This document shows positions 909 to 24,086 of a DNA stretch of 24,572 nucleotides, piece by piece (the first letter of the stretch is position 1; every line of letters begins with the position of its first letter). The notes under the pieces were generated by a model. The model was given only the letters and a program-made list of their open reading frames with translations. It searched no databases and had not been told where the DNA came from. This DNA is from a virus. The translations under genes and the position numbers were made by a program. The stretch covers positions 1 to 24,572 of IMG/VR virus record IMGVR_UViG_3300042328_000689. One strand, given 5' to 3'.

Positions 909-1260
909 AACTGATAATTCCTACGTAAGTTAAATAGTGCAGAGCTTGATCCGCGCCAAGCCAAACCCAGAACTGACGATCTGCTGTCGTAAGTCCCTTA
1001 TTCAATTTCTGTTTAAAATAATCTATATGATAGTGTAAGACAAAGTCTGCGAAGGAAAGTGCGATAATTGTATTTGCGTTAGAGCAAAAGAACACTAGAA
1101 TTAAGAAAGTAAAACTAGCATGAATTATAGCATGATGAACGCCACCTGTAGCACCATAGATACCTTTTTCTCTGAGCATGTAATCATACTGCATCAAGAA
1201 GTCAGCGATGAAATGCTTGATGCCAAATAGTGCTAGTAGAATAAAGACTGTTGCGGTCAT
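892..1260 (-). CDS. DUF3307-like integral membrane protein
   Basis: A 122-residue membrane protein. Features matching DUF3307 are the N-terminal helix leading into KHFIADFLMQYD (about residues 15-26), a GGVHHAIIHASFTFLIL helix near 39-55, a FADFVLHYHIDYFKQK segment near 70-85, and ADQALHYLTYVGIISYV at the C-terminus. The repeated His and Asp residues at helix ends are characteristic of the family, whose function is unknown. Three to four membrane helices are likely. The start overlaps the queD stop as ATGA, so translation is probably coupled. Phages may carry such proteins to alter the host envelope or a membrane metabolite, but nothing here shows this. Confidence 0.75.
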   Translation of the reverse strand: MTATVFILLALFGIKHFIADFLMQYDYMLREKGIYGATGGVHHAIIHASFTFLILVFFCSNANTIIALSFADFVLHYHIDYFKQKLNKGLTTADRQFWVWLGADQALHYLTYVGIISYVTLS

Positions 1261-1805
1261 TTGTAATATACGCTACGTGACTTAGGTGTTTCCCACCAGT
1301 CAATGTGGTCAACGGTTACATTCAATGGTTTCATTTTAACATCCACTAGATCTGCCATCCAGCTAGATAAGTTTTCACTTGTTGGAACAAAGTCTACGAT
1401 CATAAATCCTTCATAGTATTCATACTCTGGTGTGTTAGGATCTAAGCCTGTTAAGTCTAACTGCCAACCTGCTACATAGTCTGTGTTTGGGACTAATACT
1501 GGAACCAATCCACGATCACCAACGATTTGATTATACAATGGATCACTCTTGTCTAATACAAACTGATGATCAATATATTCATTGATCCACTTCTTCAACC
1601 ATTCTAAGTGACGGAAGTCAGTTACCATACCAGTTGGATCTAATTGACCAGTTGGGCTACGTAGATAAACTTGTAGTTTGCCTTCATGTCCATGTAGGTG
1701 ACGACAAGCACACTTCAAGTCTGCCGCATATTCACCATTTAGTTTCTGTGTCCAAACTCTGTGTCCATAACAGAATTCAAATGTTTTATCAATTACATGT
1801 GCCAT
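1257..1805 (-). CDS. queD: 6-carboxy-5,6,7,8-tetrahydropterin synthase (QueD)
   Basis: QueD converts 7,8-dihydroneopterin triphosphate, the FolE product, to 6-carboxytetrahydropterin, the second step toward preQ0. The 182-residue protein shows the family signature: FCYGHR with zinc ligand His15, CRHLHGH at 34-40 with catalytic Cys34 and zinc ligands His38 and His40, MVTDF at 60-64, DHQ near 79, PTSENL for pterin contact and a C-terminal WWETPKSRSVY. It is longer than typical bacterial QueD (about 120 residues) because of an insert around residues 85-135, as in longer QueD forms. It starts directly after the stop of the 80-residue gene with a GAGGA site upstream. FolE, QueE and a DpdA-like gene elsewhere in the window support a deazaguanine role rather than biopterin synthesis. 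Confidence 0.9.
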   Translation of the reverse strand: MAHVIDKTFEFCYGHRVWTQKLNGEYAADLKCACRHLHGHEGKLQVYLRSPTGQLDPTGMVTDFRHLEWLKKWINEYIDHQFVLDKSDPLYNQIVGDRGLVPVLVPNTDYVAGWQLDLTGLDPNTPEYEYYEGFMIVDFVPTSENLSSWMADLVDVKMKPLNVTVDHIDWWETPKSRSVYYK

Positions 1806-2049: not shown

Positions 2050-2071
2050 CTATATTATATTTAGATTTTTG
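2050..2071. repeat. 22-bp direct repeat, copy 1 (promoter core)
   Basis: These 22 bases are identical to 6335-6356, same orientation. The repeat covers the -10 hexamer and most of the spacer of two promoters, and each copy is followed on the minus strand, after one further base, by ATG. Confidence 0.85.
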
Positions 2072-2087: not shown

Positions 2088-2654
2088 TTAATCTAACGTA
2101 GCACCAAAAAGTTTTTTTTCACGTGCTTCTCTTTTCTTTTTAATTTCTTCTATTCTAGCTTGTTTTTCTTGCTTTATTTTTAACCGTTGCTGTCTGATTC
2201 TAACCTTTTCTTCAGTTTTCCTACGTGCCACACCCATCGGTTTAAAATTGTATCCAAACGTTAAACCATTTCTACATTGTATATTTTGTTCAACAATGTG
2301 TCTTAGGTCTTCATGACCGCATAATAATCTCTCACGGCATAGATCCACATTATCCTGCATGATATCAACACCGTAGATAGTTGACAATGCTGTTGCTAAA
2401 TCAATACCATTTTTCACTTTACGGATTAATACTTCACTGAGAAAATTTCCATCGCCGGCACTGGGCTCTAAAAATGTTTTAGTCGGGTCGCTGAAAATAC
2501 TAGAATCATATTTTTCTAAGTCATCTAACTTTTTTGTTATGACTTCTAAAGGTGTAAAGACCTCACCTGTTGACTTAACACGCAACTTTTGTCTAGCTAT
2601 CTCATCGAGATAGTTTCGATGTCTGGCATGATTTATGATTTCATCTAAACTCAT
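2088..2654 (-). CDS. Truncated N6-adenine methyltransferase-like protein with basic helical tail
   Basis: The N-terminal half is a clear type I/II N6-adenine methyltransferase start: STGEVFTP at about 28-35, SAM-binding motif I FLEPSAGDGNF at 61-71 and the following acidic strand YGVDI near 94-98. The fold stops there. No NPPY/DPPY catalytic motif follows; residues about 140-185 are a Lys/Arg/Glu/Gln-rich helix instead. At 188 residues it is well short of a catalytic enzyme. It starts inside the end of the large helicase-methyltransferase gene with a 4-base ATGA overlap, so the two are probably made together. It could be a SAM-binding or DNA-recognition partner, a regulator or a degenerate copy. 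I see the motif loss directly; any partner role is inference. Confidence 0.75.
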   Translation of the reverse strand: MSLDEIINHARHRNYLDEIARQKLRVKSTGEVFTPLEVITKKLDDLEKYDSSIFSDPTKTFLEPSAGDGNFLSEVLIRKVKNGIDLATALSTIYGVDIMQDNVDLCRERLLCGHEDLRHIVEQNIQCRNGLTFGYNFKPMGVARRKTEEKVRIRQQRLKIKQEKQARIEEIKKKREAREKKLFGATLD

Positions 2655-5600
2655 GAAAATCTAATATAGTCTGTGCTGTTGTCAAAAATAGTCTGGCACC
2701 AGGCTTGTTCTTCTTTTGTTAACCCTACTATTGTTGCGGCATCGTTAAAATCTTTTACAGTTGTAAATGACGGAACGCTTCTTAAATGTTTTCCACTTGC
2801 GATATTCATATCTAATTTATAAATGTGCAGGGCTAAGATCGCAAAAGGAGTTTTCAAATACGCAAACGCTGCATCAGCTAATTCTTTAGAGGCATAGTAT
2901 ACAGCATGATCTTCAGTGTATTCATCTGACGGAATAACTTTTGCTTTGTCAGGCAAAAATCTATAACGTTGGAGTTTAGGAAGATGGATACAATAATCAC
3001 CGGTTGATTCAAGATCGTTCTGCAGATTCCTTGTCTTACATGCTTTTAATACTTTCGTTTTGATTGAATGAAACATGTCATTGCTGGCAAAGTTATTGAT
3101 ATCTTCTATACTAGTATAATGAACAGTTTTGTTTAGATTGTTATATTCGACATCATACTCTGAGACTGTGGTCTTTTTATCTACGATAATTGCCGCCACA
3201 CCAGTGTTTAACTGTGCGTTATCAAATACATCTTTGGTATATAATGTAACATTTACCAGATGATCTTTGATAATATTTCTTGCATCTTGATAGTAACTGT
3301 TTTCTTTTTTCTGATCAACCAGATATGTACTTGGTTGCACGAATAAGACATATTGATTACTTAATTCGTTAGCAAGAGATAAAAATTGCAGATGATCTGG
3401 ATTACCTTTGCCAAAAAATGGAGGATTGGTTAATACCAAATCAAATTTTGATTTAGGATTTTTCATATAAAATTCTTCCTTAAGATCGTCGATTTCAGTG
3501 TATAAAATACTTATGATATTAATATTCTGCTGAGCCTTTTTAATCCGGCATTCAGCAGTTTTTAAATTTATCAGCGACTTATCACATATCGTAATAGAAT
3601 TAACTGTGCTTTCTTTCAAGAAAGACACAACTAACTGACCATCACCAACACTCAAGTCACACATACTTCCTACGCCGGGTAATTTCTTAGTATTTTTGTC
3701 AGCTACCCATTCGGGAACATTCACGTCGGCATTGTTACTGTTACTAAATTGTGAAAAATCAAAATCCTCATGCCGCATTTTTTTAGAAGCGATCTGAAGT
3801 TGTTCGTTTATTAATTCTTCAACAAATAGATTTTTAATAAGTTCTTTATTATATGTATGATAAGATCTTTCAGCCGATTTGTCAAGACACTTGTCTGTTA
3901 GCCAAGAATTAAATAGATCGTCGGGTACATTGTTAAAAAGATCGTCGATTTCTGTATATTGGTGATCGGTAATTTCTAATAACAAAGGCAACATACTTGA
4001 AATAGTCATCGCTCTTTTAATCAACTCTTCGAATTCATCTTTTTCAGACTTAGATTTTTCAGTTGATCCAGTCTGGCTTGACCCGATCTTACCTTCTCTT
4101 TCATCTTTATCTTCTTTTATGGCTGTGTCAGATTTAGTTACTGTAGACAATAATTCTCGGGCATCGATAAGTCCTGCACGATCTAATAGATTCCGACGTT
4201 TCATCCCTTCTACTACATTACCAGCAAAGTAATCTTCCTGGACATTATCCCAGGTAGTATCCACAGTATCCCATTCTCCCTTACGTGTCATTGGGATAAG
4301 ATTGTGCAGTTCTCTTCCAGAACTATTAATCGTTCCACCTTTGGTACGACTGCGTACAAGTTCATATTGCATAACACTGGCACGAAACATGTTTGCATCA
4401 TAGACATCAAACCAATCTTCAGTAGTATTCTGTCCTCGTAATTCTAATTGATGACCAATCTTAAAATCATTGTATGCATCAAATCGAACCACCGCACTCC
4501 AGGGTGCTTTGGCTCCTCGTAACATACGCCCAACTGTAAGGAATATAGTGCGTTTGCCCTTCATAGAATCATTTACCTGTTGTTCTATGCGGCTAGCACT
4601 GGAAAATGTATTTGCTGTTAAAGGTACGTGTTCACAGTTGATCTCTCGATCCATGATGTGATTATACAGTGCCAAACAACTTGCCACGCTAGGCATACAA
4701 CAAAAAATATGTTTATGATCTTCTGGAGCACGAATGCCTTTATTATTTTCCCAATAGTAGACCATTTCCCATAATCGATTCACTTCACCAAATTTAGTAA
4801 ATTGAATTTTATTACCTTGTTCGTCTACGAATCGTTGAGTGATTTTATTGAAAGTCCAATTACCGACTTTGGTAGTATGGAATAATGCGACCAATTTACG
4901 TGTAACTTCTTGTTCATCCATTTCTGCTGGATCAAGATCTTCAAGTGGTAGTATTTTTGCTATTAGACTATGTTTGCGCATCCTAGGCATTTTTGTATTA
5001 CCTGCTTTGATATCTTTAATCTCGTCAAAAATATCATACAAGAAATGATTACCGGAAGAAATTTCGTGCCGTAAGGCATATAAGTCTGTACCACTCATCC
5101 AAATACGACGAGTGTATCCAAACAAATCTAGTGCTTGTTGGCTACGGGTGGTTCTCATACCATGATCGCTTTCATCGATCACACACAAATCAGCAGGATT
5201 ATTCTTAAAATAATCGCACTTAGCAGATTCATATATGACTTCAGCACCTTCACGGTCTTCGTCTGTGTTATATTCTTCCGCAACAGTCATATCGATACTT
5301 TGCATACTTGCGAATCGGAACACAGCATCAACTTTAGGATCATCCGATAAGTCTTTCAATTTTTCTTTCCAGTCTGGATTATTAGTATCTACACCAGCAA
5401 GAACTATGCCTTCGATATAATAGTAATCCTTAAGGTCTTTTTTAGCACCTTCGAACGCACTGGGCCATAGACTGATAAAATCAATAATAATTTTTTCATT
5501 GATTCCTGAATTACGAAGTGTTCTGATGTATTTGGCAATCCCAAAGAACATAGTAGTATTCTTGCCAGCACGCGGTTTCATTAATAAAAAGAAATCACGC

Positions 5601-6208
5601 ATGCCGTTACCGTTGGTTAACCAGAGAGACAACAAGTCACTGCCTTTAACTTGGCTGTTATCTCGTGCAATTTGTCCAAAATTTATAACATTGACGTTTT
5701 TTTGTTGTGTCACTGCTTGGATAGCGTCAGTGAATATTTCGATTCTATTTTCCCAAATATCTCCAAAATCAAAATTTTCAGTTCCACCAGCAGATCCTTC
5801 GCTATTAACAGCAGGAGCCAACCAGCGATTGTCTACTATATCATAGGCAGATTCGATTGATCCGTGTACCCCTTCAATCTTACCAAAATATCGATGCAAG
5901 GCATCTTCAAGTGTGAGTGCCGCCTCTTCGCTTACACAGGGTATAAACACTTCTGTTTCTAAGGGATTTTCTGTTGCGCTCAGGTGGTCTCGGGTGCAAA
6001 TAGATCTACCGTTAAAGTAATAAACAACACCTTTACCAATTTTTACCCGGACTATCTGATTCATTTCGTGACGCAAATAAACCCCATAGATTTTATCGTT
6101 GTGATGAGCATCACAGTAAGATTTTACATCGTTGTAGCTTCTTAATGATGGATGTAGAGTTTCTTGTAAATGTTCAGCATACCAAGAACGACTTTGTGGT
6201 TTGTTCAT
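2651..6208 (-). CDS. GIY-YIG-like / SF2 helicase / N6-adenine methyltransferase fusion
   Basis: A 1185-residue multidomain protein resembling single-chain restriction-modification enzymes. Residues about 38-110 look like a GIY-YIG/T5orf172-type nuclease: YGVY, VKIGKG, an Arg/His pair in RSICTRDHL and a later Glu in LEDALHRYF. Helicase motifs follow: KPRAGK at 211-216 (Walker A-like, with Asn in place of the usual Thr after Lys), VIDESD at 343-348, MSGTD at 371-375, and a second RecA-like domain up to QLELRGQ near 587-593. A charged linker (about 695-725) leads to a methyltransferase with motif I-like DLSVGDGQ at 851-858 and catalytic NPPF at 928-931. The last 150 residues may recognise the target. 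Tandem promoters lie upstream. It could restrict competing DNA, modify phage DNA or remodel DNA; domain activity is unproven. Confidence 0.8.
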   Translation of the reverse strand: MNKPQSRSWYAEHLQETLHPSLRSYNDVKSYCDAHHNDKIYGVYLRHEMNQIVRVKIGKGVVYYFNGRSICTRDHLSATENPLETEVFIPCVSEEAALTLEDALHRYFGKIEGVHGSIESAYDIVDNRWLAPAVNSEGSAGGTENFDFGDIWENRIEIFTDAIQAVTQQKNVNVINFGQIARDNSQVKGSDLLSLWLTNGNGMRDFFLLMKPRAGKNTTMFFGIAKYIRTLRNSGINEKIIIDFISLWPSAFEGAKKDLKDYYYIEGIVLAGVDTNNPDWKEKLKDLSDDPKVDAVFRFASMQSIDMTVAEEYNTDEDREGAEVIYESAKCDYFKNNPADLCVIDESDHGMRTTRSQQALDLFGYTRRIWMSGTDLYALRHEISSGNHFLYDIFDEIKDIKAGNTKMPRMRKHSLIAKILPLEDLDPAEMDEQEVTRKLVALFHTTKVGNWTFNKITQRFVDEQGNKIQFTKFGEVNRLWEMVYYWENNKGIRAPEDHKHIFCCMPSVASCLALYNHIMDREINCEHVPLTANTFSSASRIEQQVNDSMKGKRTIFLTVGRMLRGAKAPWSAVVRFDAYNDFKIGHQLELRGQNTTEDWFDVYDANMFRASVMQYELVRSRTKGGTINSSGRELHNLIPMTRKGEWDTVDTTWDNVQEDYFAGNVVEGMKRRNLLDRAGLIDARELLSTVTKSDTAIKEDKDEREGKIGSSQTGSTEKSKSEKDEFEELIKRAMTISSMLPLLLEITDHQYTEIDDLFNNVPDDLFNSWLTDKCLDKSAERSYHTYNKELIKNLFVEELINEQLQIASKKMRHEDFDFSQFSNSNNADVNVPEWVADKNTKKLPGVGSMCDLSVGDGQLVVSFLKESTVNSITICDKSLINLKTAECRIKKAQQNINIISILYTEIDDLKEEFYMKNPKSKFDLVLTNPPFFGKGNPDHLQFLSLANELSNQYVLFVQPSTYLVDQKKENSYYQDARNIIKDHLVNVTLYTKDVFDNAQLNTGVAAIIVDKKTTVSEYDVEYNNLNKTVHYTSIEDINNFASNDMFHSIKTKVLKACKTRNLQNDLESTGDYCIHLPKLQRYRFLPDKAKVIPSDEYTEDHAVYYASKELADAAFAYLKTPFAILALHIYKLDMNIASGKHLRSVPSFTTVKDFNDAATIVGLTKEEQAWCQTIFDNSTDYIRFS

Positions 6209-6334: not shown

Positions 6335-6356
6335 CTATATTATATTTAGATTTTTG
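6335..6356. repeat. 22-bp direct repeat, copy 2 (promoter core)
   Basis: Identical to 2050-2071 in sequence and orientation; it covers the -10 hexamer and most of the spacer of the distal promoter. Confidence 0.85.
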
Positions 6357-6367: not shown

Positions 6368-7447
6368 CTACTTTTTCTTTTGGAAAAAAATCTTTTTAGT
6401 TGAAGCATGCAAAGTATTGTATTCCATTGTTTCTGGACAAAATTTGCATTGCGGAATAGGATTCATTCTGTTGTCAATAAATTTTTGAAATTCGTCAACA
6501 GTCATTTCTGAAGTAGCCGCGTTATAACTGTATAACAGTTCTTTATCATTTTCATTATCTAATATTAGATTAAATTGATCATTAAAGTCAGAAAAATGCG
6601 CAACTTCATGGCATTGATATGCTTTACCTTTGTAAAAATTAAAACACATTTTATTCATACATACTTCCCATGCCTTTGTAGGATCACTATTGTGTAGTCT
6701 AAAATGTGTTCTATCATCTGACGGAATTAAAGCAGAACTAGAAAAAATGTGAGCAGTATTTAAATATACAGCAATATTATTTTTATCTATTAGAATAAGA
6801 TCAAACATTTCATTTGGATCATGCAAATTAAATACTTCAGAACATTCTTTTTTAATATAATCAGGTAAAAATTGCCAATCATCAAGAGTTTGGCATTTGG
6901 GCCAAGAATCTGCTTTTATAGCAGAATATTTGTTAATCCAAAATTCTTTATTTGATTCAAAATCAAGTCGATCAAACATCAATTCTGATTTTACTTCATC
7001 ACTTAATTGATCTAACCTAAAAACTTTAATTGGACCTTGCAACCAATTTTTAATTAATTCAACAGCTTCTTTTCTTCTGGCTTTATTGTGTAGTTGAAAT
7101 CTAACTAAAAATCCAGCTTTAACATTAAGGAATAGATTGTATAACTTTTGATCGTTGGCCTTAATGGTTGAGCCATTTGTGGAAACTTCTCCGGGAGAAT
7201 TAGGAAACAGTTCATTGAGTCCAAGAACCCACTCATTGAATGATGGATTAAGTAAAGGTTCACCACCTTGTATATTCCATCTTCTTGGTTCAATTATGTT
7301 TGCCCATTTTTTATAAATGTCTTGATAGTCTTTCCATAGTTGATGTCCAGAAAAATTAAAATTACTAAATGTTTGACAATCTGGACAGTTATAATTACAA
7401 ACATTAGTAATATTAACTACAAACAATTTTAAATCAACTTTACTCAT
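6368..7447 (-). CDS. Radical SAM protein with C-terminal SPASM-like cysteines
   Basis: A 359-residue radical SAM enzyme. The [4Fe-4S]-binding CxxxCxxC is NVCNYNCPDC (Cys17, Cys21, Cys24), and the SAM-binding GGEP lies in NIQGGEPLLN at about 58-67. Cysteines late in the protein (CMNKMCF, YQCHE, PQCKFC) suggest an auxiliary-cluster SPASM/twitch region. The substrate cannot be told from sequence. Residues about 173-208 form an unusual module, IKADSWP followed by LPDYIKKEC, that also ends the glycosyltransferase-like protein at 12937-14241. It is last in the operon after RNase H and the DEDDh exonuclease. Very similar radical SAM genes are common in marine phages; I infer glycan or peptide modification only loosely. 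Confidence 0.8.
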   Translation of the reverse strand: MSKVDLKLFVVNITNVCNYNCPDCQTFSNFNFSGHQLWKDYQDIYKKWANIIEPRRWNIQGGEPLLNPSFNEWVLGLNELFPNSPGEVSTNGSTIKANDQKLYNLFLNVKAGFLVRFQLHNKARRKEAVELIKNWLQGPIKVFRLDQLSDEVKSELMFDRLDFESNKEFWINKYSAIKADSWPKCQTLDDWQFLPDYIKKECSEVFNLHDPNEMFDLILIDKNNIAVYLNTAHIFSSSALIPSDDRTHFRLHNSDPTKAWEVCMNKMCFNFYKGKAYQCHEVAHFSDFNDQFNLILDNENDKELLYSYNAATSEMTVDEFQKFIDNRMNPIPQCKFCPETMEYNTLHASTKKIFFQKKK

Positions 7448-9443: not shown

Positions 9444-10550
9444 TTAATCCTTGAATAAATCTACGGTTTCCCAAGGTAAGTTTTCTTTACCGAAGTGTCC
9501 ATAGTTAGTTGTACTACTGTAAATAGGTCGGAACATCTCAAATCTATTTATGATACCTGCTGGTGTTAGATCAACATTTTCACGTATCCACTGAGTAATC
9601 GTATGATCAAACTTGATGCCCTTATCAGTCTTAACAAACAAACTGGTAGGTTCTTTAACACCGATAGCATAGCTAACTTGAACAGTTGCTTTGTGTGCAC
9701 CTTTTGTTGCTACAATATTCTTAGCTAGATAGCGAGCCATATAAGCCGCACTACGATCCACCTTAGTAGGATCTTTGCCAGAGAAAGCACCACCACCGTG
9801 TGGGCTATATCCACCATAGGTATCAACGATGATCTTACGTCCTGTCAATCCAGTGTCACCATCTGGACCACCAATAACAAAACGACCAGTTGGATTAATC
9901 AAGTATTCTGTATTGGCATCTATTATGTTTGTCGGCAATACTGTATCAATGATAGTTTTAACCTGCTCACGCAAATCAATGATATCTATATCAGCTGAGT
10001 GTTGCGTCGAACACACTATCTTAGCGATACGACTAACAGTGCCATCATCATTATATTCCATAGTAACCTGTGACTTAGCATCTGGACCTAACCATACTGC
10101 TCCACTCTTGCGAACTGCTGTTAACCGTTCAACAATTTTGTGACTGTAGTAGATAGCACTAGGCATCAAGTCTGGAGTTTCGTTAATAGCATATCCGAAC
10201 ATCAGTCCTTGATCACCAGCACCAAACGTGTCTGTACCTAAGGCAATGTCGGCTGATTGACCGTGCATATAGTTCTTAATGTCCGCAGTTTCCCAATGGA
10301 ATCCATCTTGCTCATAGCCAATATCGCGGATAACACGACGCACAGCATTCTCAACTTCAAGGTGATTGTAAATGCCCTTGTATTCACCAGCTATGATGAC
10401 CTGATTGGTTGTTACCAGAGTCTCACAGGCACAGCGATAAGCAGGATTCTGCTCACGCATCATTAAATCTAATACTGCATCACTGATAGCGTCTGCTACC
10501 TTATCTGGATGTCCTTCGCTGACCGATTCCGATGTAAACAAATAACTCAT
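9444..10550 (-). CDS. metK: S-adenosylmethionine synthetase (MetK)
   Basis: MetK makes S-adenosylmethionine from methionine and ATP. The 368-residue protein is full length for the family (E. coli 384) with all landmarks: GHPDKVADAISDAVLD at 13-28, GAGDQGLMFGY at 110-120, a GGPDGDTGLTGRKI block near 228-240 and the P-loop-like GGGAFSGKDPTKVDRS at 252-267. It overlaps the DUF2061 gene by 4 bases (ATGA). The phage encodes two DNA-methyltransferase-like proteins and three radical SAM enzymes, QueE included, all users of SAM, so extra synthesis during infection makes sense. Some T4-related phages instead destroy SAM to evade restriction; this one appears to do the opposite. Confidence 0.95.
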   Translation of the reverse strand: MSYLFTSESVSEGHPDKVADAISDAVLDLMMREQNPAYRCACETLVTTNQVIIAGEYKGIYNHLEVENAVRRVIRDIGYEQDGFHWETADIKNYMHGQSADIALGTDTFGAGDQGLMFGYAINETPDLMPSAIYYSHKIVERLTAVRKSGAVWLGPDAKSQVTMEYNDDGTVSRIAKIVCSTQHSADIDIIDLREQVKTIIDTVLPTNIIDANTEYLINPTGRFVIGGPDGDTGLTGRKIIVDTYGGYSPHGGGAFSGKDPTKVDRSAAYMARYLAKNIVATKGAHKATVQVSYAIGVKEPTSLFVKTDKGIKFDHTITQWIRENVDLTPAGIINRFEMFRPIYSSTTNYGHFGKENLPWETVDLFKD

Positions 10551-11896: not shown

Positions 11897-12745
11897 TTAT
11901 TTTCCCCAACTATTACCCCAAAGATCAACGTGTAATCTTGGGCTGTAATAATAACCACGACGCATAGCTTCATCGGCTACGTTAAATTTATTGCCATCAT
12001 AGACTTTAACCACACCGCCCACTGGCATAATGTATATAACACCTTTGAACTTGGCTTTCCTGTATTCTGATACTGCACGATCTACTTCATCAAAATCGCT
12101 GGGTTTTTCAACTACAAATTTAAGATATGCAGTACCAACACGCTCATAGCTCTTAACGATCTCTGGCTTGACGGCGTCGGCCCATGCTTCACCACTTGCT
12201 GATAGTTTAGCACTGACACTGAATGTGATCTCACGGCTACCACGATTCCAAAGTTTCAGATACTTGGCAAAGTCTTCATGTAGTTCTTGAGTACCATTTG
12301 TTTCAAATGTTAAATTCTTTAAGTTATACATATCCTTGTGACTTAACAAGTCTGGATAAGCACGTTGCCAACCTAGTAAAGGTTCGCCTCCTGTGATGAC
12401 CAAATGTGTATCATTACCATTGGGCATGATCCAACTGTTGCTAGGTACTAGTGCTAACATCTTTTCAACTACTGTGCTGGTTTCATATGTAGGACTTAGG
12501 TTTTTGAATCTTGGATCCCATGACGCATAACTGTCACAGCCTGTATTAACCAACGGTAAGTCTTCATAGCGATTATATAATTCTACTTTGACAGCATCAC
12601 GCTCAGCTGAAAAAGTGCCGCGTGGCATACCAAACCCACCACAGGTAAAGTTACAGCCGAATGTACGTAAGAACACACTAGGAACGCCTACAAAGCGTCC
12701 TTCACCTTGTGCTGAATAAAATATTTCACTAACTTTTATTTTCAC
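11897..12745 (-). CDS. queE: 7-carboxy-7-deazaguanine synthase (QueE), long phage form
   Basis: QueE is the radical SAM enzyme that contracts 6-carboxytetrahydropterin to 7-carboxy-7-deazaguanine, the third step to preQ0. Family marks in this 282-residue protein are the start FYSAQGEGRFVGVPSVFLRT, GCNFTC with Cys31 and Cys35, and ITGGEPLLGW near 123. The usual third cluster cysteine (CxxC after the first pair) is absent: GGFGMPRG follows. A Cys at 70 in NTGCDSY is the likely third ligand, as I recall for long phage and actinobacterial-type QueE. The C-terminal PVGG...HVDLWG fits the family. The start is GTG at 12745 with AAGGA five bases upstream. It precedes the oxygenase fusion. Confidence 0.85.
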   Translation of the reverse strand: MKIKVSEIFYSAQGEGRFVGVPSVFLRTFGCNFTCGGFGMPRGTFSAERDAVKVELYNRYEDLPLVNTGCDSYASWDPRFKNLSPTYETSTVVEKMLALVPSNSWIMPNGNDTHLVITGGEPLLGWQRAYPDLLSHKDMYNLKNLTFETNGTQELHEDFAKYLKLWNRGSREITFSVSAKLSASGEAWADAVKPEIVKSYERVGTAYLKFVVEKPSDFDEVDRAVSEYRKAKFKGVIYIMPVGGVVKVYDGNKFNVADEAMRRGYYYSPRLHVDLWGNSWGK

Positions 12746-15097: not shown

Positions 15098-15433
15098 TTA
15101 TCCTTTAAATGCGGTAATTCTAGTAATTTCACCGCGAACATTGTAATGAATGATATCAACTACCTTAAGTTCGTCTTTGCTATTAACTAGAATTTTTAAA
15201 TCGGCAATGATAACCTGTCCATCGAGATAGATATCTTTTGGAGTGACATGGATGGTATCTACACCGTCAAATATCCGTTGATTGGCCTTGACAACTTCTT
15301 CCTTACCAAACGCTGTGATTTCCCAGTCAGATAAAATAATATCATGTTCAAACATACTAGCCACAGCCGCGATATCTTTGCGACTGAATGCTTCAAAATA
15401 TTGCGTTGCTAATTGTTTATAGTCGGGCATCAT
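15098..15433 (-). CDS. SnoaL/NTF2-like fold protein
   Basis: A 111-residue protein with the NTF2/SnoaL pattern: an N-terminal helix YFEAFSRKDIAAVASMFEHD (about 13-32) followed by DWEITAFGKEEV, a helix with QRIFDG, and strands ending DIIHYNVRGEITRITAFKG. Such cone-shaped domains act as small isomerases or hydrolases, or simply bind ligands. The Asp residues (Asp32 and Asp90) lie where SnoaL-like enzymes have acidic groups, but no substrate can be read. It starts within the folE stop (ATGA overlap), so it may be co-translated with folE; a part in pterin or deazaguanine metabolism is speculative. Confidence 0.75.
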   Translation of the reverse strand: MMPDYKQLATQYFEAFSRKDIAAVASMFEHDIILSDWEITAFGKEEVVKANQRIFDGVDTIHVTPKDIYLDGQVIIADLKILVNSKDELKVVDIIHYNVRGEITRITAFKG

Positions 15434-16125
15434 CTGGGGGCAAACTCCTGTTGTAGTTTGATATTATCAAAGAACTCTTTCTTAGTGTTACCATCATCTT
15501 TAAATGCACCTTTTAACACGGTAGTCTGTGTAAGTGAACTATGTGCCATAATACCTCGATTCTCGCAACAACCATGTGTGGCCTGTATGTAGACTGCTAC
15601 ATTCTCACTGCCTGTGGCTTTCATTATTTCTCGAGCGATGTCGTTAGCAAGTTCTTCTTGTAGTGTGCCACGACGAGCACACCATTGAGCAATACGAGTA
15701 TACTTACTAAGCCCAATAAGTTTTTGTGCGGCGATAATACCAATATAGGCCACCCCTGCCACAGGTTGATGATGATGACTACACATACTACGCAATTCAC
15801 TGCGAACAACCAGCATACCTTCATAACGATCCTCGCTATCATTTGGAAAAGCTGTTGCATCTGGTGCTGGATCATATCGGCCTGCCATGATCTCATATAG
15901 ATACATTTTTGCTAGTCTACGTGCTGTGCCTTGGCTGTTTGGATCTGTATGACGATCAATAATAAGACTATCTAATACACCTTCAAATTTGGTAGTCAAT
16001 TCATCTACTAGTTCAGCACGTTCACCGTCTAAGATATAATCTGAGATGTTGTCACCTGCCCAATAACGAGCATTTTTTGCTTGGATGCGTTCGAGAATTC
16101 GTTCGCTTATAGTTTTTTCACTCAA
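15430..16125 (-). CDS. folE: GTP cyclohydrolase I (FolE), TTG start
   Basis: FolE opens GTP to 7,8-dihydroneopterin triphosphate, the entry step to both folate and 7-deazaguanine pathways. The 231-residue protein has the zinc-site and active-site motifs: SMCSHHHQPV at 113-122 (Cys115, His118; the usual Glu after Cys is Ser), KLIGLSKYTRI at 135-145 and ATHGCCENRG at 182-191. EGVLDSLIIDRHTDPNSQGTARR occupies the position of the N-terminal substrate helix. Length is typical (E. coli 222). The start is TTG at 16125 with GGAG seven bases upstream. The gene heads the operon that also carries queE and metK, with a near-consensus promoter just upstream. Confidence 0.93.
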   Translation of the reverse strand: MSEKTISERILERIQAKNARYWAGDNISDYILDGERAELVDELTTKFEGVLDSLIIDRHTDPNSQGTARRLAKMYLYEIMAGRYDPAPDATAFPNDSEDRYEGMLVVRSELRSMCSHHHQPVAGVAYIGIIAAQKLIGLSKYTRIAQWCARRGTLQEELANDIAREIMKATGSENVAVYIQATHGCCENRGIMAHSSLTQTTVLKGAFKDDGNTKKEFFDNIKLQQEFAPR

Positions 16126-22544: not shown

Positions 22545-24086
22545 TTATTCTCCTAGTTGGGTTTCTAAATTGTCTAAATTAGCTTCATCTAATCCACTGT
22601 CGTCTACGTGATATTCCTCAGGCTCTTCACTCTCAAACAAACTATTAAACATAGTCGAAGCATTAACAGTTTTCTTACCTGTTGCACCACGTGTACCAAT
22701 GATGCTCATCCAGAACTTGCTGAATTCATCAATGATCGCTAATGCCGTACCTTTATCGCTGGTAGCAAATATGGCATCAACCACGTCACGGAAGTACACG
22801 CGATCAAATGTTTCCTGTACTAACATACGAGGAGTTACTCCAAGATCATATTGACGATTGGCTTCTTGCACTGCTGTTAGATGACTCCAAACATTATGAC
22901 CCATCTGTATAGCATAACTGAAACTATCCCACGAAGTCTTACCTTCTTTATTAATCTTATTTAGGTCACCGGGTTTATAGATGCAGATATCTTTAATAGT
23001 ACAACGTTGGCTCACTGGACTTTCTGTAAATGCTTTAAACAAATTATCTTGTAATACTGCATCACGGAATCTGCGAGAATCTGTAGAATATTTTTTATCA
23101 TCTACACTAGGTACCATTCTATAGACCCATTTTTCTCTGTCTTGGATTTCTGTTTGGATATAGATCTGTCCATTGGCACTAGCTAAGAATGGACTAGCGC
23201 AATCAAACGATATTGTAAAGTTTTCATTGTGATATTTTCTTACTGCTCGTTGTATATCTGTTAATAAACATGCCCACTCAAGTTTACTTGTGCCCAAGAA
23301 GTGCATCCAATCATGTAGACCTTTTTCAAGCAAACCATCAAATCGTAGTTCAACTAGTCTACGTAGCACCAGATGCACATCACACATGTTTTGTCCGCCC
23401 ATGGCCCAACCTTCAAATGGTTGATCATATTGTTTAGGATCGCAGTACTTCTTCATACGCTCATACCAATCATCTGCATCAGCATGATTCTCACCTTGTA
23501 GGACGTTTAAGAACTTACATGCACCTGTGCGATTCTTCATGAAGTAATCGTTATTGATGTAAGTACCTTCAACTGCTTCCATGTATGTATTGATACCTGT
23601 GGCTTTGCGACCTGCTGGACTACGAGCTACCCAAGCTGGAATATCTAAGATCATACCACGATCCATATAAGCATCCATCCAAGTAAGCACAAGCTCACGT
23701 TTCTTTTGTGCTTTAGGACAGTTAGGATTCTTCCAATCACCTTCCCATACACCCTTACCAATCTGGAAACCGCCCGAATCGCCTAAGATAAATGAGCGGC
23801 TACGATCTCTATTACGTATCATATCTTCTTTGGGACTGTGTTTGTTTACATCTAATTCTGCATGACCTGCTGAATACAAGGCCCATTGATATGGAAAATA
23901 TGCTGCATCTGGATTAAGCCAGTTTAATCCCTCAATACCATTTTCAAAGTCAGAGGGTATGCGTGCTGGATCTACATACGTAGGATCATGCCGTTGTTTA
24001 CCTACGTAGGTAGCATAGAAGCCACTCAATGCCGGTAAAAATACAGCATAATCTAGCTGCTTTGCGGTTAAATTATCACGTTCCAT
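22545..24086 (-). CDS. dpdA: DpdA-like 7-deazaguanine DNA transglycosylase (TGT superfamily)
   Basis: This 513-residue protein is a TGT-fold base-exchange enzyme. Family motifs appear in order: LGDSGGFQIG at 101-110 with the general acid/base Asp103, NVLQG at 194-198 (TGT GIVQGG), GWAMGG at 226-231 (TGT GYAIGG), HFLGTS at 262-267 (TGT YLMGVG) and SFDCASP at 293-299 with nucleophile candidate Asp295. The CxCxxC zinc site of tRNA-guanine transglycosylase is not visible, and the protein is longer than tRNA enzymes (about 380), both pointing to DpdA, which swaps guanine in DNA for preQ0. FolE, QueD and QueE in the window supply the base pathway. An acidic C-terminal tail ends the protein. tRNA as substrate is the main alternative. 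Confidence 0.82.
   Translation of the reverse strand: MERDNLTAKQLDYAVFLPALSGFYATYVGKQRHDPTYVDPARIPSDFENGIEGLNWLNPDAAYFPYQWALYSAGHAELDVNKHSPKEDMIRNRDRSRSFILGDSGGFQIGKGVWEGDWKNPNCPKAQKKRELVLTWMDAYMDRGMILDIPAWVARSPAGRKATGINTYMEAVEGTYINNDYFMKNRTGACKFLNVLQGENHADADDWYERMKKYCDPKQYDQPFEGWAMGGQNMCDVHLVLRRLVELRFDGLLEKGLHDWMHFLGTSKLEWACLLTDIQRAVRKYHNENFTISFDCASPFLASANGQIYIQTEIQDREKWVYRMVPSVDDKKYSTDSRRFRDAVLQDNLFKAFTESPVSQRCTIKDICIYKPGDLNKINKEGKTSWDSFSYAIQMGHNVWSHLTAVQEANRQYDLGVTPRMLVQETFDRVYFRDVVDAIFATSDKGTALAIIDEFSKFWMSIIGTRGATGKKTVNASTMFNSLFESEEPEEYHVDDSGLDEANLDNLETQLGE

What the first reader, a model, noticed from the sequence alone, without database searches (positions are those of the whole stretch)
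2651..6208. Single-chain GIY-YIG-like / SF2 helicase / adenine methyltransferase in a phage
One 1185-residue chain holds a GIY-YIG/T5orf172-like front end, Walker A and DESD helicase motifs and an NPPF methyltransferase. This resembles single-polypeptide type ISP/IIG restriction enzymes, but with an unusual nuclease class. The Walker A-like loop lacks the usual Thr after Lys. A phage carrying it next to deazaguanine genes could use it against competing phages or host DNA, with its own DNA protected by modification.
Basis: partly seen in the sequence, partly recalled or inferred. Interest (0 to 1): 0.72.

Follow-up and report, generated by a model that had tools for sequence, protein, structure and literature searches.

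The report
Phage restriction-modification-like fusion plus partner methylase half
A virus of bacteria carries one long protein that joins a probable DNA-cutting domain, a DNA motor and a DNA-methylating enzyme, followed by a small gene for a second piece of the methylating enzyme; the same gene set recurs in hundreds of phages and gut bacteria and looks like an uncharacterised restriction-modification system that phages have taken over.

Summary
The ORF is real but lies on the minus strand (6208→2651, 1185 aa). Helicase (res. ~177-625) and gamma-type N6-adenine methyltransferase (MTase; ~820-1041, NPPF) are firmly supported by family profiles and by a confident fold. The GIY-YIG front end is supported only by motif spacing (GVY-x11-KIG, Arg, ExxxH; 7 of 100,000 shuffles) and by homologues with a true T5orf172 domain, not by any profile.

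The pair belongs to a widespread family. Bacteria have M1 > M2 > R operons (at least 563 loci for R); phages have R > M2 > M1, often with R-M2 fused as here. In bacteria the SAM motif is invariant in M1 and altered in M2, while NPPY is invariant in M2 and absent in M1. In phages M2 often loses motif I or the whole first half, and Aeromonas phages fuse M2 and M1 in permuted order. I read it as a phage-borne restriction-modification-like system whose MTase is partitioned between two polypeptides. It is not Type ISP. No activity is shown; this copy's own MTase core looks complete, so its dependence on M1 is unproven.

The parts
2651..6208 (-). Fused R-M2 gene, 1185 aa: GIY-YIG-like front, SF2 helicase, spacer, gamma N6-adenine MTase (M2), target-recognition-like C-terminus
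5819..6097 (-). Putative GIY-YIG / T5orf172-like nuclease domain, res. 38-130 (GVY 42-44, KIG 56-58, then Arg, ExxxH, NRW)
   Evidence: motif spacing 7/100,000 shuffles; same motifs in homologous R proteins, where Pfam T5orf172 E 2.3e-9; low-confidence fold; no direct profile hit
4334..5680 (-). SF2 helicase-like ATPase, res. 177-625
   Evidence: profile 82 bits; fold match to SNF2/RIG-I/RadD motors Z 18-19, rmsd 3.7-4.8 A over 318-359 residues
5558..5572 (-). Walker A R-A-G-K-N, res. 213-217 (Asn in place of Thr/Ser)
   Evidence: family census
5165..5176 (-). DESD (motif II), res. 345-348
3086..3751 (-). MTase core, res. 820-1041 (complete Rossmann core in the model)
   Evidence: Pfam MTS; fold match M.TaqI Z 18.4, 2.5 A over 185; HsdM Z 19.5, 2.8 A over 212
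3638..3658 (-). Motif I-like DLSVGDG, res. 851-857
3416..3427 (-). Catalytic motif IV NPPF, res. 928-931
   Evidence: NPPY or NPPF in family M2s
2690..3085 (-). C-terminal target-recognition-like part of M2, res. 1042-1173
   Evidence: M2 profile covers 917-1169; recognition role inferred
2088..2654 (-). M1 gene, 188 aa: motif X (EVFTP) plus canonical motif I (FLEPSAGDGNF) half-MTase without NPPY, with basic tail; overlaps the R-M2 stop codon by 4 bases
6335..6355 (-). Promoter-like element AAAAATCTAAATATAATATAG upstream of R-M2; identical copy at 2050-2070 just after M1
   Evidence: 2 exact matches, 0 expected in shuffles; role inferred

Best explanation
The two genes 6208→2651 (R-M2) and 2654→2088 (M1) form a phage-borne, ATP-dependent restriction-modification-like cassette. 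R-M2 carries a GIY-YIG-like nuclease, an SF2 DNA motor and the catalytic (NPPF) plus target-recognition part of an N6-adenine MTase; M1 is a partner MTase half with the canonical SAM-binding motif. Proposed working: M1 and M2 together recognise a short site and methylate adenine on phage DNA; on unmethylated DNA the ATPase is engaged and the GIY-YIG domain cuts, so the phage marks its own DNA and attacks host or rival DNA. Shown by sequence or fold: domains, gene order, conservation, partition of motifs in the family. Inferred: enzyme activities, M1-M2 assembly, methylated base, biological role. My likelihoods: R-M-like DNA modification/cleavage system 0.85; active GIY-YIG nuclease in this copy 0.6; M1 needed for methylation in the family 0.65, in this copy 0.5; use against rivals or host rather than only self-methylation 0.5.
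For: Profile and fold matches of helicase and MTase parts. Conserved bacterial operon M1 > M2 > R, with Pfam T5orf172 + ResIII in R and Eco57I in M2 of the homologous gut-phage set. Motif partition in 75-88 aligned, mostly bacterial sequences: M1 FLEPACGxGNF in 71 of 71, M2 Lys in place of the motif I Gly in 77 of 77 and NPPY in 79 of 79. Phage loci: R > M2 > M1 order nearly universal where context is visible, R-M2 fused as here in ten others at least. M1 motif I essentially universal (72 of 76 by regex; the other four contain GDG variants), M2 motif I recognisable in only 25 of 68, first half shorter than 60 residues in 14 more. Aeromonas phages fuse M2-M1 in one permuted chain, and both window proteins match consecutive parts of PHROG 11371 (3-244 and 275-382).
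Against: No profile detects the GIY-YIG domain in this protein. Walker A lacks Thr/Ser. The MTase core of this protein is predicted complete with its own GxG motif I, so M1 could be dispensable or have another task. The AlphaFold2 model of the permuted M2-M1 chain is too poor in its NPPY half to show a composite fold. No activity, methylome or expression data.
Confidence: 0.6

Rival explanations
1. Self-sufficient single-chain R-M enzyme (Type ISP/IIG-like) in which R-M2 alone binds SAM, methylates and cuts; M1 is a vestigial or accessory gene.
For: Complete MTase core with DLSVGDG motif I, matched to M.TaqI at 2.5 A; LlaBIII and LlaGI (Type ISP) among fold matches, though over 530-596 residues only at about 21 A; PADLOC Type IIG profile PDLC03626 matches gut-phage R and M2 in the order of one chain.
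Against: M1 is kept immediately next to M2 or R-M2 in nearly all phage loci where context is visible (these loci were found through M1, so this is partly by construction) and in the bacterial operons found through R, with its motif I conserved while that of M2 decays.
Confidence: 0.2
2. Modification-only (anti-restriction/epigenetic) device: the MTase protects phage DNA, the motor is a DNA translocase, and the nuclease is degenerate.
For: Front end diverged beyond profile detection; Walker A Asn; several phage loci show M2-M1 with no R in view; some Aeromonas phages keep only M2-M1.
Against: GIY-YIG motif order and spacing retained; R stays joined to M2/M1 in most loci with visible context; GIY-YIG residues nearly invariant in bacterial R.
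Confidence: 0.15
3. Modification-dependent (Type IV-like) enzyme that attacks DNA bearing foreign modification, with the MTase acting as reader rather than writer.
For: Phage has its own deazaguanine genes; fold match to SauUSI, an ATP-dependent restriction nuclease.
Against: NPPF intact and NPPY/F conserved across M2s; the SauUSI match is most simply explained by the shared motor fold.
Confidence: 0.05

Closest known systems
Three-gene M1-M2-R operon of Clostridia, Bacteroidales, Fibrobacter and others, also in gut phages NatCom_35866 and MT835565 (NatCom_35866 genes annotated as hypothetical / DNA methyltransferase)
   Same: GIY-YIG + SF2 helicase R protein, NPPY MTase M2, motif-I-only M1
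   Different: Here R and M2 are fused, gene order is R-M2 > M1, and R lost the T5orf172 profile match and the Walker Thr
Synechococcus phage MC09 1074-aa 'Eco57I' protein and its relatives in viral contigs (L096-L101)
   Same: R-M2 chain or R > M2 genes followed by M1
   Different: M2 motif I lost there (GDPSGLHS-like); Walker A is GK(T/S)
Type ISP restriction enzymes LlaBIII / LlaGI
   Same: SF2 motor and gamma N6-adenine MTase in one chain with a nuclease; both cores match structurally
   Different: LlaGI/LlaBIII have an Mrr-type PD-(D/E)XK nuclease and no separate half-MTase gene (own knowledge)
PHROG 11371 (includes the Aeromonas phage permuted chain; unknown function)
   Same: M2 and M1 parts match both window proteins
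   Different: Single permuted chain, no nuclease or helicase
PADLOC PDLC03626 'REase_MTase_IIG'
   Same: Profile of 1359 positions matches gut-phage R and M2 in chain order
   Different: No match to the window protein itself at E<=1

Membership tests
Phage R-M2-M1 family (described here) | SF2 helicase of the R family | tested here: met
   82 bits, res. 194-767; shuffles up to 5.0
Phage R-M2-M1 family (described here) | M2 with NPPY/F and its C-terminal part | tested here: met
   51-52 bits, res. 917-1169; shuffles up to 3.2
Phage R-M2-M1 family (described here) | Adjacent M1 with motif I and no NPPY | tested here: met
   55-64% identical to M1 of L108-L113, where M1 lies directly downstream of M2 or R-M2
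GIY-YIG / T5orf172 nuclease | Match to a family profile | tested here: not met
   no Pfam hit at E<=1; family-built profiles score below shuffles
GIY-YIG / T5orf172 nuclease | GIY-x(10-11)-YIG, Arg, Glu in order and spacing | tested here: met
   GVY-x11-KIG, R, ExxxH; 7 of 100,000 shuffles; pattern written after seeing the sequence
GIY-YIG / T5orf172 nuclease | Beta-beta-alpha-beta-alpha fold | tested here: inconclusive
   order present but pLDDT about 40
Type ISP restriction enzyme | Mrr-type PD-(D/E)XK nuclease at N-terminus | tested here: inconclusive
   no such Pfam hit and GIY-YIG-like motifs instead; fold of res. 1-130 unresolved
Type ISP restriction enzyme | SF2 motor and gamma N6-adenine MTase in one chain | tested here: met
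Type ISP restriction enzyme | Complete in one polypeptide, without a further MTase subunit gene | tested here: inconclusive
   M1 gene conserved next door; need for it untested
Gamma-class N6-adenine MTase | Motif I then NPPY/F in a Rossmann core | tested here: met
   DLSVGDG and NPPF; M.TaqI Z 18.4, 2.5 A over 185 residues
Gamma-class N6-adenine MTase | m6A activity | not testable with these tools
   needs enzyme or methylome data

The most novel reading that the evidence does not exclude
An obligately split DNA adenine methyltransferase: M1 carries the SAM-binding half and M2 the catalytic and target-recognition half, the latter as a domain of a nuclease-motor chain. One M1 serves several exchangeable M2s, as in loci with tandem M2 arrays, giving phages a switchable restriction-modification weapon.
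Probability: 0.35. Interest if true: 0.78.

Novelty: new variant of a known kind. Interest (0 to 1): 0.55.

Why it matters
A restriction-modification-like cassette carried by hundreds of phage contigs (552 M1 relatives in one scan) and at least 563 bacterial loci goes under 'hypothetical' in most annotated phage records seen here. The strict division of the SAM motif and the catalytic motif between two proteins, natural permuted fusions, and arrays of several catalytic subunits beside one SAM subunit make a specific, testable case for a split DNA methyltransferase, and for phages using restriction-modification themselves.

Tried and rejected
Close relatives of the whole 1185-aa protein: none in phages at 1e-5 or in viral contigs by its own peptide patterns; the relatives came only through the small M1 gene. 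Direct PDB sequence search: no meaningful hit. GIY-YIG profiles built from relatives did not detect the front end. The first M2/M1 alignment A4 was misaligned in the M2 C-termini and was replaced by A5. AlphaFold2 of the permuted Aeromonas chain: M1 half confident, NPPY half pLDDT 24-50, so no evidence for or against a composite Rossmann fold. Unrelated replication or packaging protein: rejected by the family matches. Frameshifted or chimeric ORF: rejected, as fused R-M2 chains of 1141-1242 aa recur in other contigs. Literature searches for this gene set or for a split adenine MTase in phages found nothing in the open-access library; Iyer et al. 2021 (PMC7824862) describe DNA modification and Mom-nuclease fusions in jumbo phages; the passages found there do not describe this cassette.
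Full report
What is there. The window is a 24,572-base IMG/VR virus record. The frame named in the finding is open over 1185 codons on the minus strand, 6208 to 2651; the plus strand of the same stretch is full of stops. All larger genes of the window run on that strand. The next gene, 2654 to 2088, starts inside the stop of the first (ATGA overlap) and encodes 188 aa.

The long protein. Library scans see little: Pfam MTS at residues 847-933 (E 1.2e-5), a weak Eco57I hit, PHROG 11371 at 921-1158 (E 4.5e-9) and PADLOC mad2 over the MTase. No close relative appears in 50,697 phage records at 1e-5. Relatives were found by a detour. The 188-aa protein has many homologues in phages, which led to gut-phage and cyanophage loci holding full sets of genes, then to 80 kept loci from bacterial genomes (563 relatives in all) and to 80 kept viral loci (552 relatives in all). 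A profile of the phage R (nuclease-helicase) family built without the window protein finds its residues 194-767 with 82 bits, and an M2 profile finds 917-1169 with 51-52 bits; the best of 50 shuffles score 5.0 and 3.2. These scores were obtained with HMMER's speed filters off; with the filters on, the same profiles did not report the protein.

Fold. AlphaFold2 with 44 family sequences gives confident cores for helicase and MTase (mean pLDDT 63 overall, many blocks of 85-95 in 180-400 and 830-1000). The MTase core 820-1041 matches HsdM (Z 19.5, 2.8 A over 212 residues) and M.TaqI (Z 18.4, 2.5 A over 185); 177-625 matches SNF2, RIG-I and RadD motors (Z 18-19, rmsd 3.7-4.8 A). Type ISP LlaBIII and LlaGI also match both parts (Z about 18), but the whole-chain superposition is poor (about 21 A), so domain packing is not established.

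The front end. GVY (42-44), 11 residues, KIG (56-58), Arg, then ExxxH and NRW reproduce the order and spacing of GIY-YIG proteins; 7 of 100,000 shuffles of residues 1-190 match the pattern up to ExxxH. The pattern was written after seeing the sequence, so this is supportive, not proof. Homologous R proteins carry a genuine T5orf172 domain (Pfam E 2.3e-9 in NatCom_35866) with nearly invariant residues in 88 aligned sequences, mostly bacterial. No profile, including two built here, detects the domain in the window protein, and the model is unreliable there (pLDDT about 40). The Walker loop reads RAGKN; most relatives have Thr or Ser, but Asn recurs in L172, L173 and L184, so it is a recurrent variant rather than a lone defect.

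The partner gene and the family. The 188-aa M1 has motif X (EVFTP) and a canonical motif I (FLEPSAGDGNF) and then, where NPPY should follow, a basic tail. In bacteria the order M1 (about 240 aa) > M2 (about 520 aa) > R (about 970 aa) holds in most of the 80 kept loci, which were found through R. There the motifs are divided: M1 has FLEPACGxGNF in 71 of 71 and no conserved NPPY; M2 has NPPY in 79 of 79 but Lys in place of the first motif I glycine in 77 of 77 and Ala at the strand-2 acidic position in 73 of 77. In phages the order is R > M2 > M1; R is often split in two genes, and R-M2 is one chain of 1141-1242 aa in at least ten other loci. Of 68 distinct M2s with a first half, 25 keep a recognisable motif I; 14 more have fewer than 60 residues before NPPY. 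The cleanest examples are M2s in L102 and L148 that begin about 12 residues before NPPY and abut the previous gene. Several loci have two to five M2s beside a single M1. Aeromonas phages have one chain running NPPY half, then motif X/I half, a circular permutation, and the two window proteins match consecutive parts of PHROG 11371, which has that layout.

Interpretation. I infer that M1 and M2 act together, M1 giving the SAM site and M2 the catalytic and target-recognition parts, and that R is the ATP-driven restriction arm. For the window copy there is a caution: its own MTase core is predicted complete with DLSVGDG, so it may bind SAM alone. An attempt to see a composite fold with the permuted Aeromonas chain failed, the NPPY half having only four sequences. 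Nothing here shows activity. The deazaguanine idea is only partly supported: the window carries FolE, QueD and QueE genes and a gene homologous to one of PA5oct-like jumbo phages, but a homologue of that gene is found in 9 of 33 cassette-bearing contigs and not in the two Aeromonas genomes.

Comparison and novelty. The motor plus MTase in one chain works like Type ISP enzymes, but membership is not established: the nuclease class seems different and a conserved half-MTase gene accompanies it. PADLOC's Type IIG profile PDLC03626 covers R and M2 of the gut-phage version, so part of the wider family is probably already counted among restriction enzymes. I found no description of the three-part set or of a split adenine MTase in phages in the searched open-access literature; subscription papers and REBASE were not searchable. 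I file it as a new variant of a known kind.

Noticed in passing
L102 3027-11352, L149, and L148 5965-10690: One M1 with an array of several M2 genes; the related contig L148 has the same flanks but a single long M2 whose start resembles the first and whose end resembles a later M2 of the array, as if recombination between repeated M2 first halves had removed the middle: possible specificity switching.
   Followed up: partly
L107 3783-6299: Aeromonas phage gene joining a GIY-YIG-like domain directly to M2, with no helicase match, followed by M1; a smaller version of the same design.
   Followed up: no
L112, L117-L119, L121-L124, L126, L127, L129, L142, L147, L162, L163, L175, L185: The helicase R protein is split into two adjacent genes (about 275-385 and 425-500 aa), the first ending near the DEAD-like motif.
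   Followed up: no
window 2050-2070 and 6335-6355, minus strand: Perfect 21-base repeat AAAAATCTAAATATAATATAG, once upstream of R-M2 and once just after M1; none expected by chance. Looks like a phage promoter element.
   Followed up: partly
window 9444-10550: Phage-encoded S-adenosylmethionine synthetase (three Pfam domains) on the same strand, which could supply the methyl donor.
   Followed up: no
window 1257-1805, 11897-12745, 15430-16125, 22545-24086: QueD-like, QueE-like and FolE genes and a protein with homologues in PA5oct-like jumbo phages (probable DpdA by its sequence, from own knowledge), suggesting deazaguanine DNA modification; homologues 63-76% identical lie in contigs of up to 400 kb, so the window may be a piece of a jumbo phage.
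   Followed up: partly
L004 2324-7075 (Prevotella phage Lak-B2): Separate helicase, a probable PD-(D/E)XK nuclease (by eye) and an NPPY MTase with degenerate first half in a row, plus a motif-I half at 6650-7075: an analogous split set with another nuclease class.
   Followed up: no
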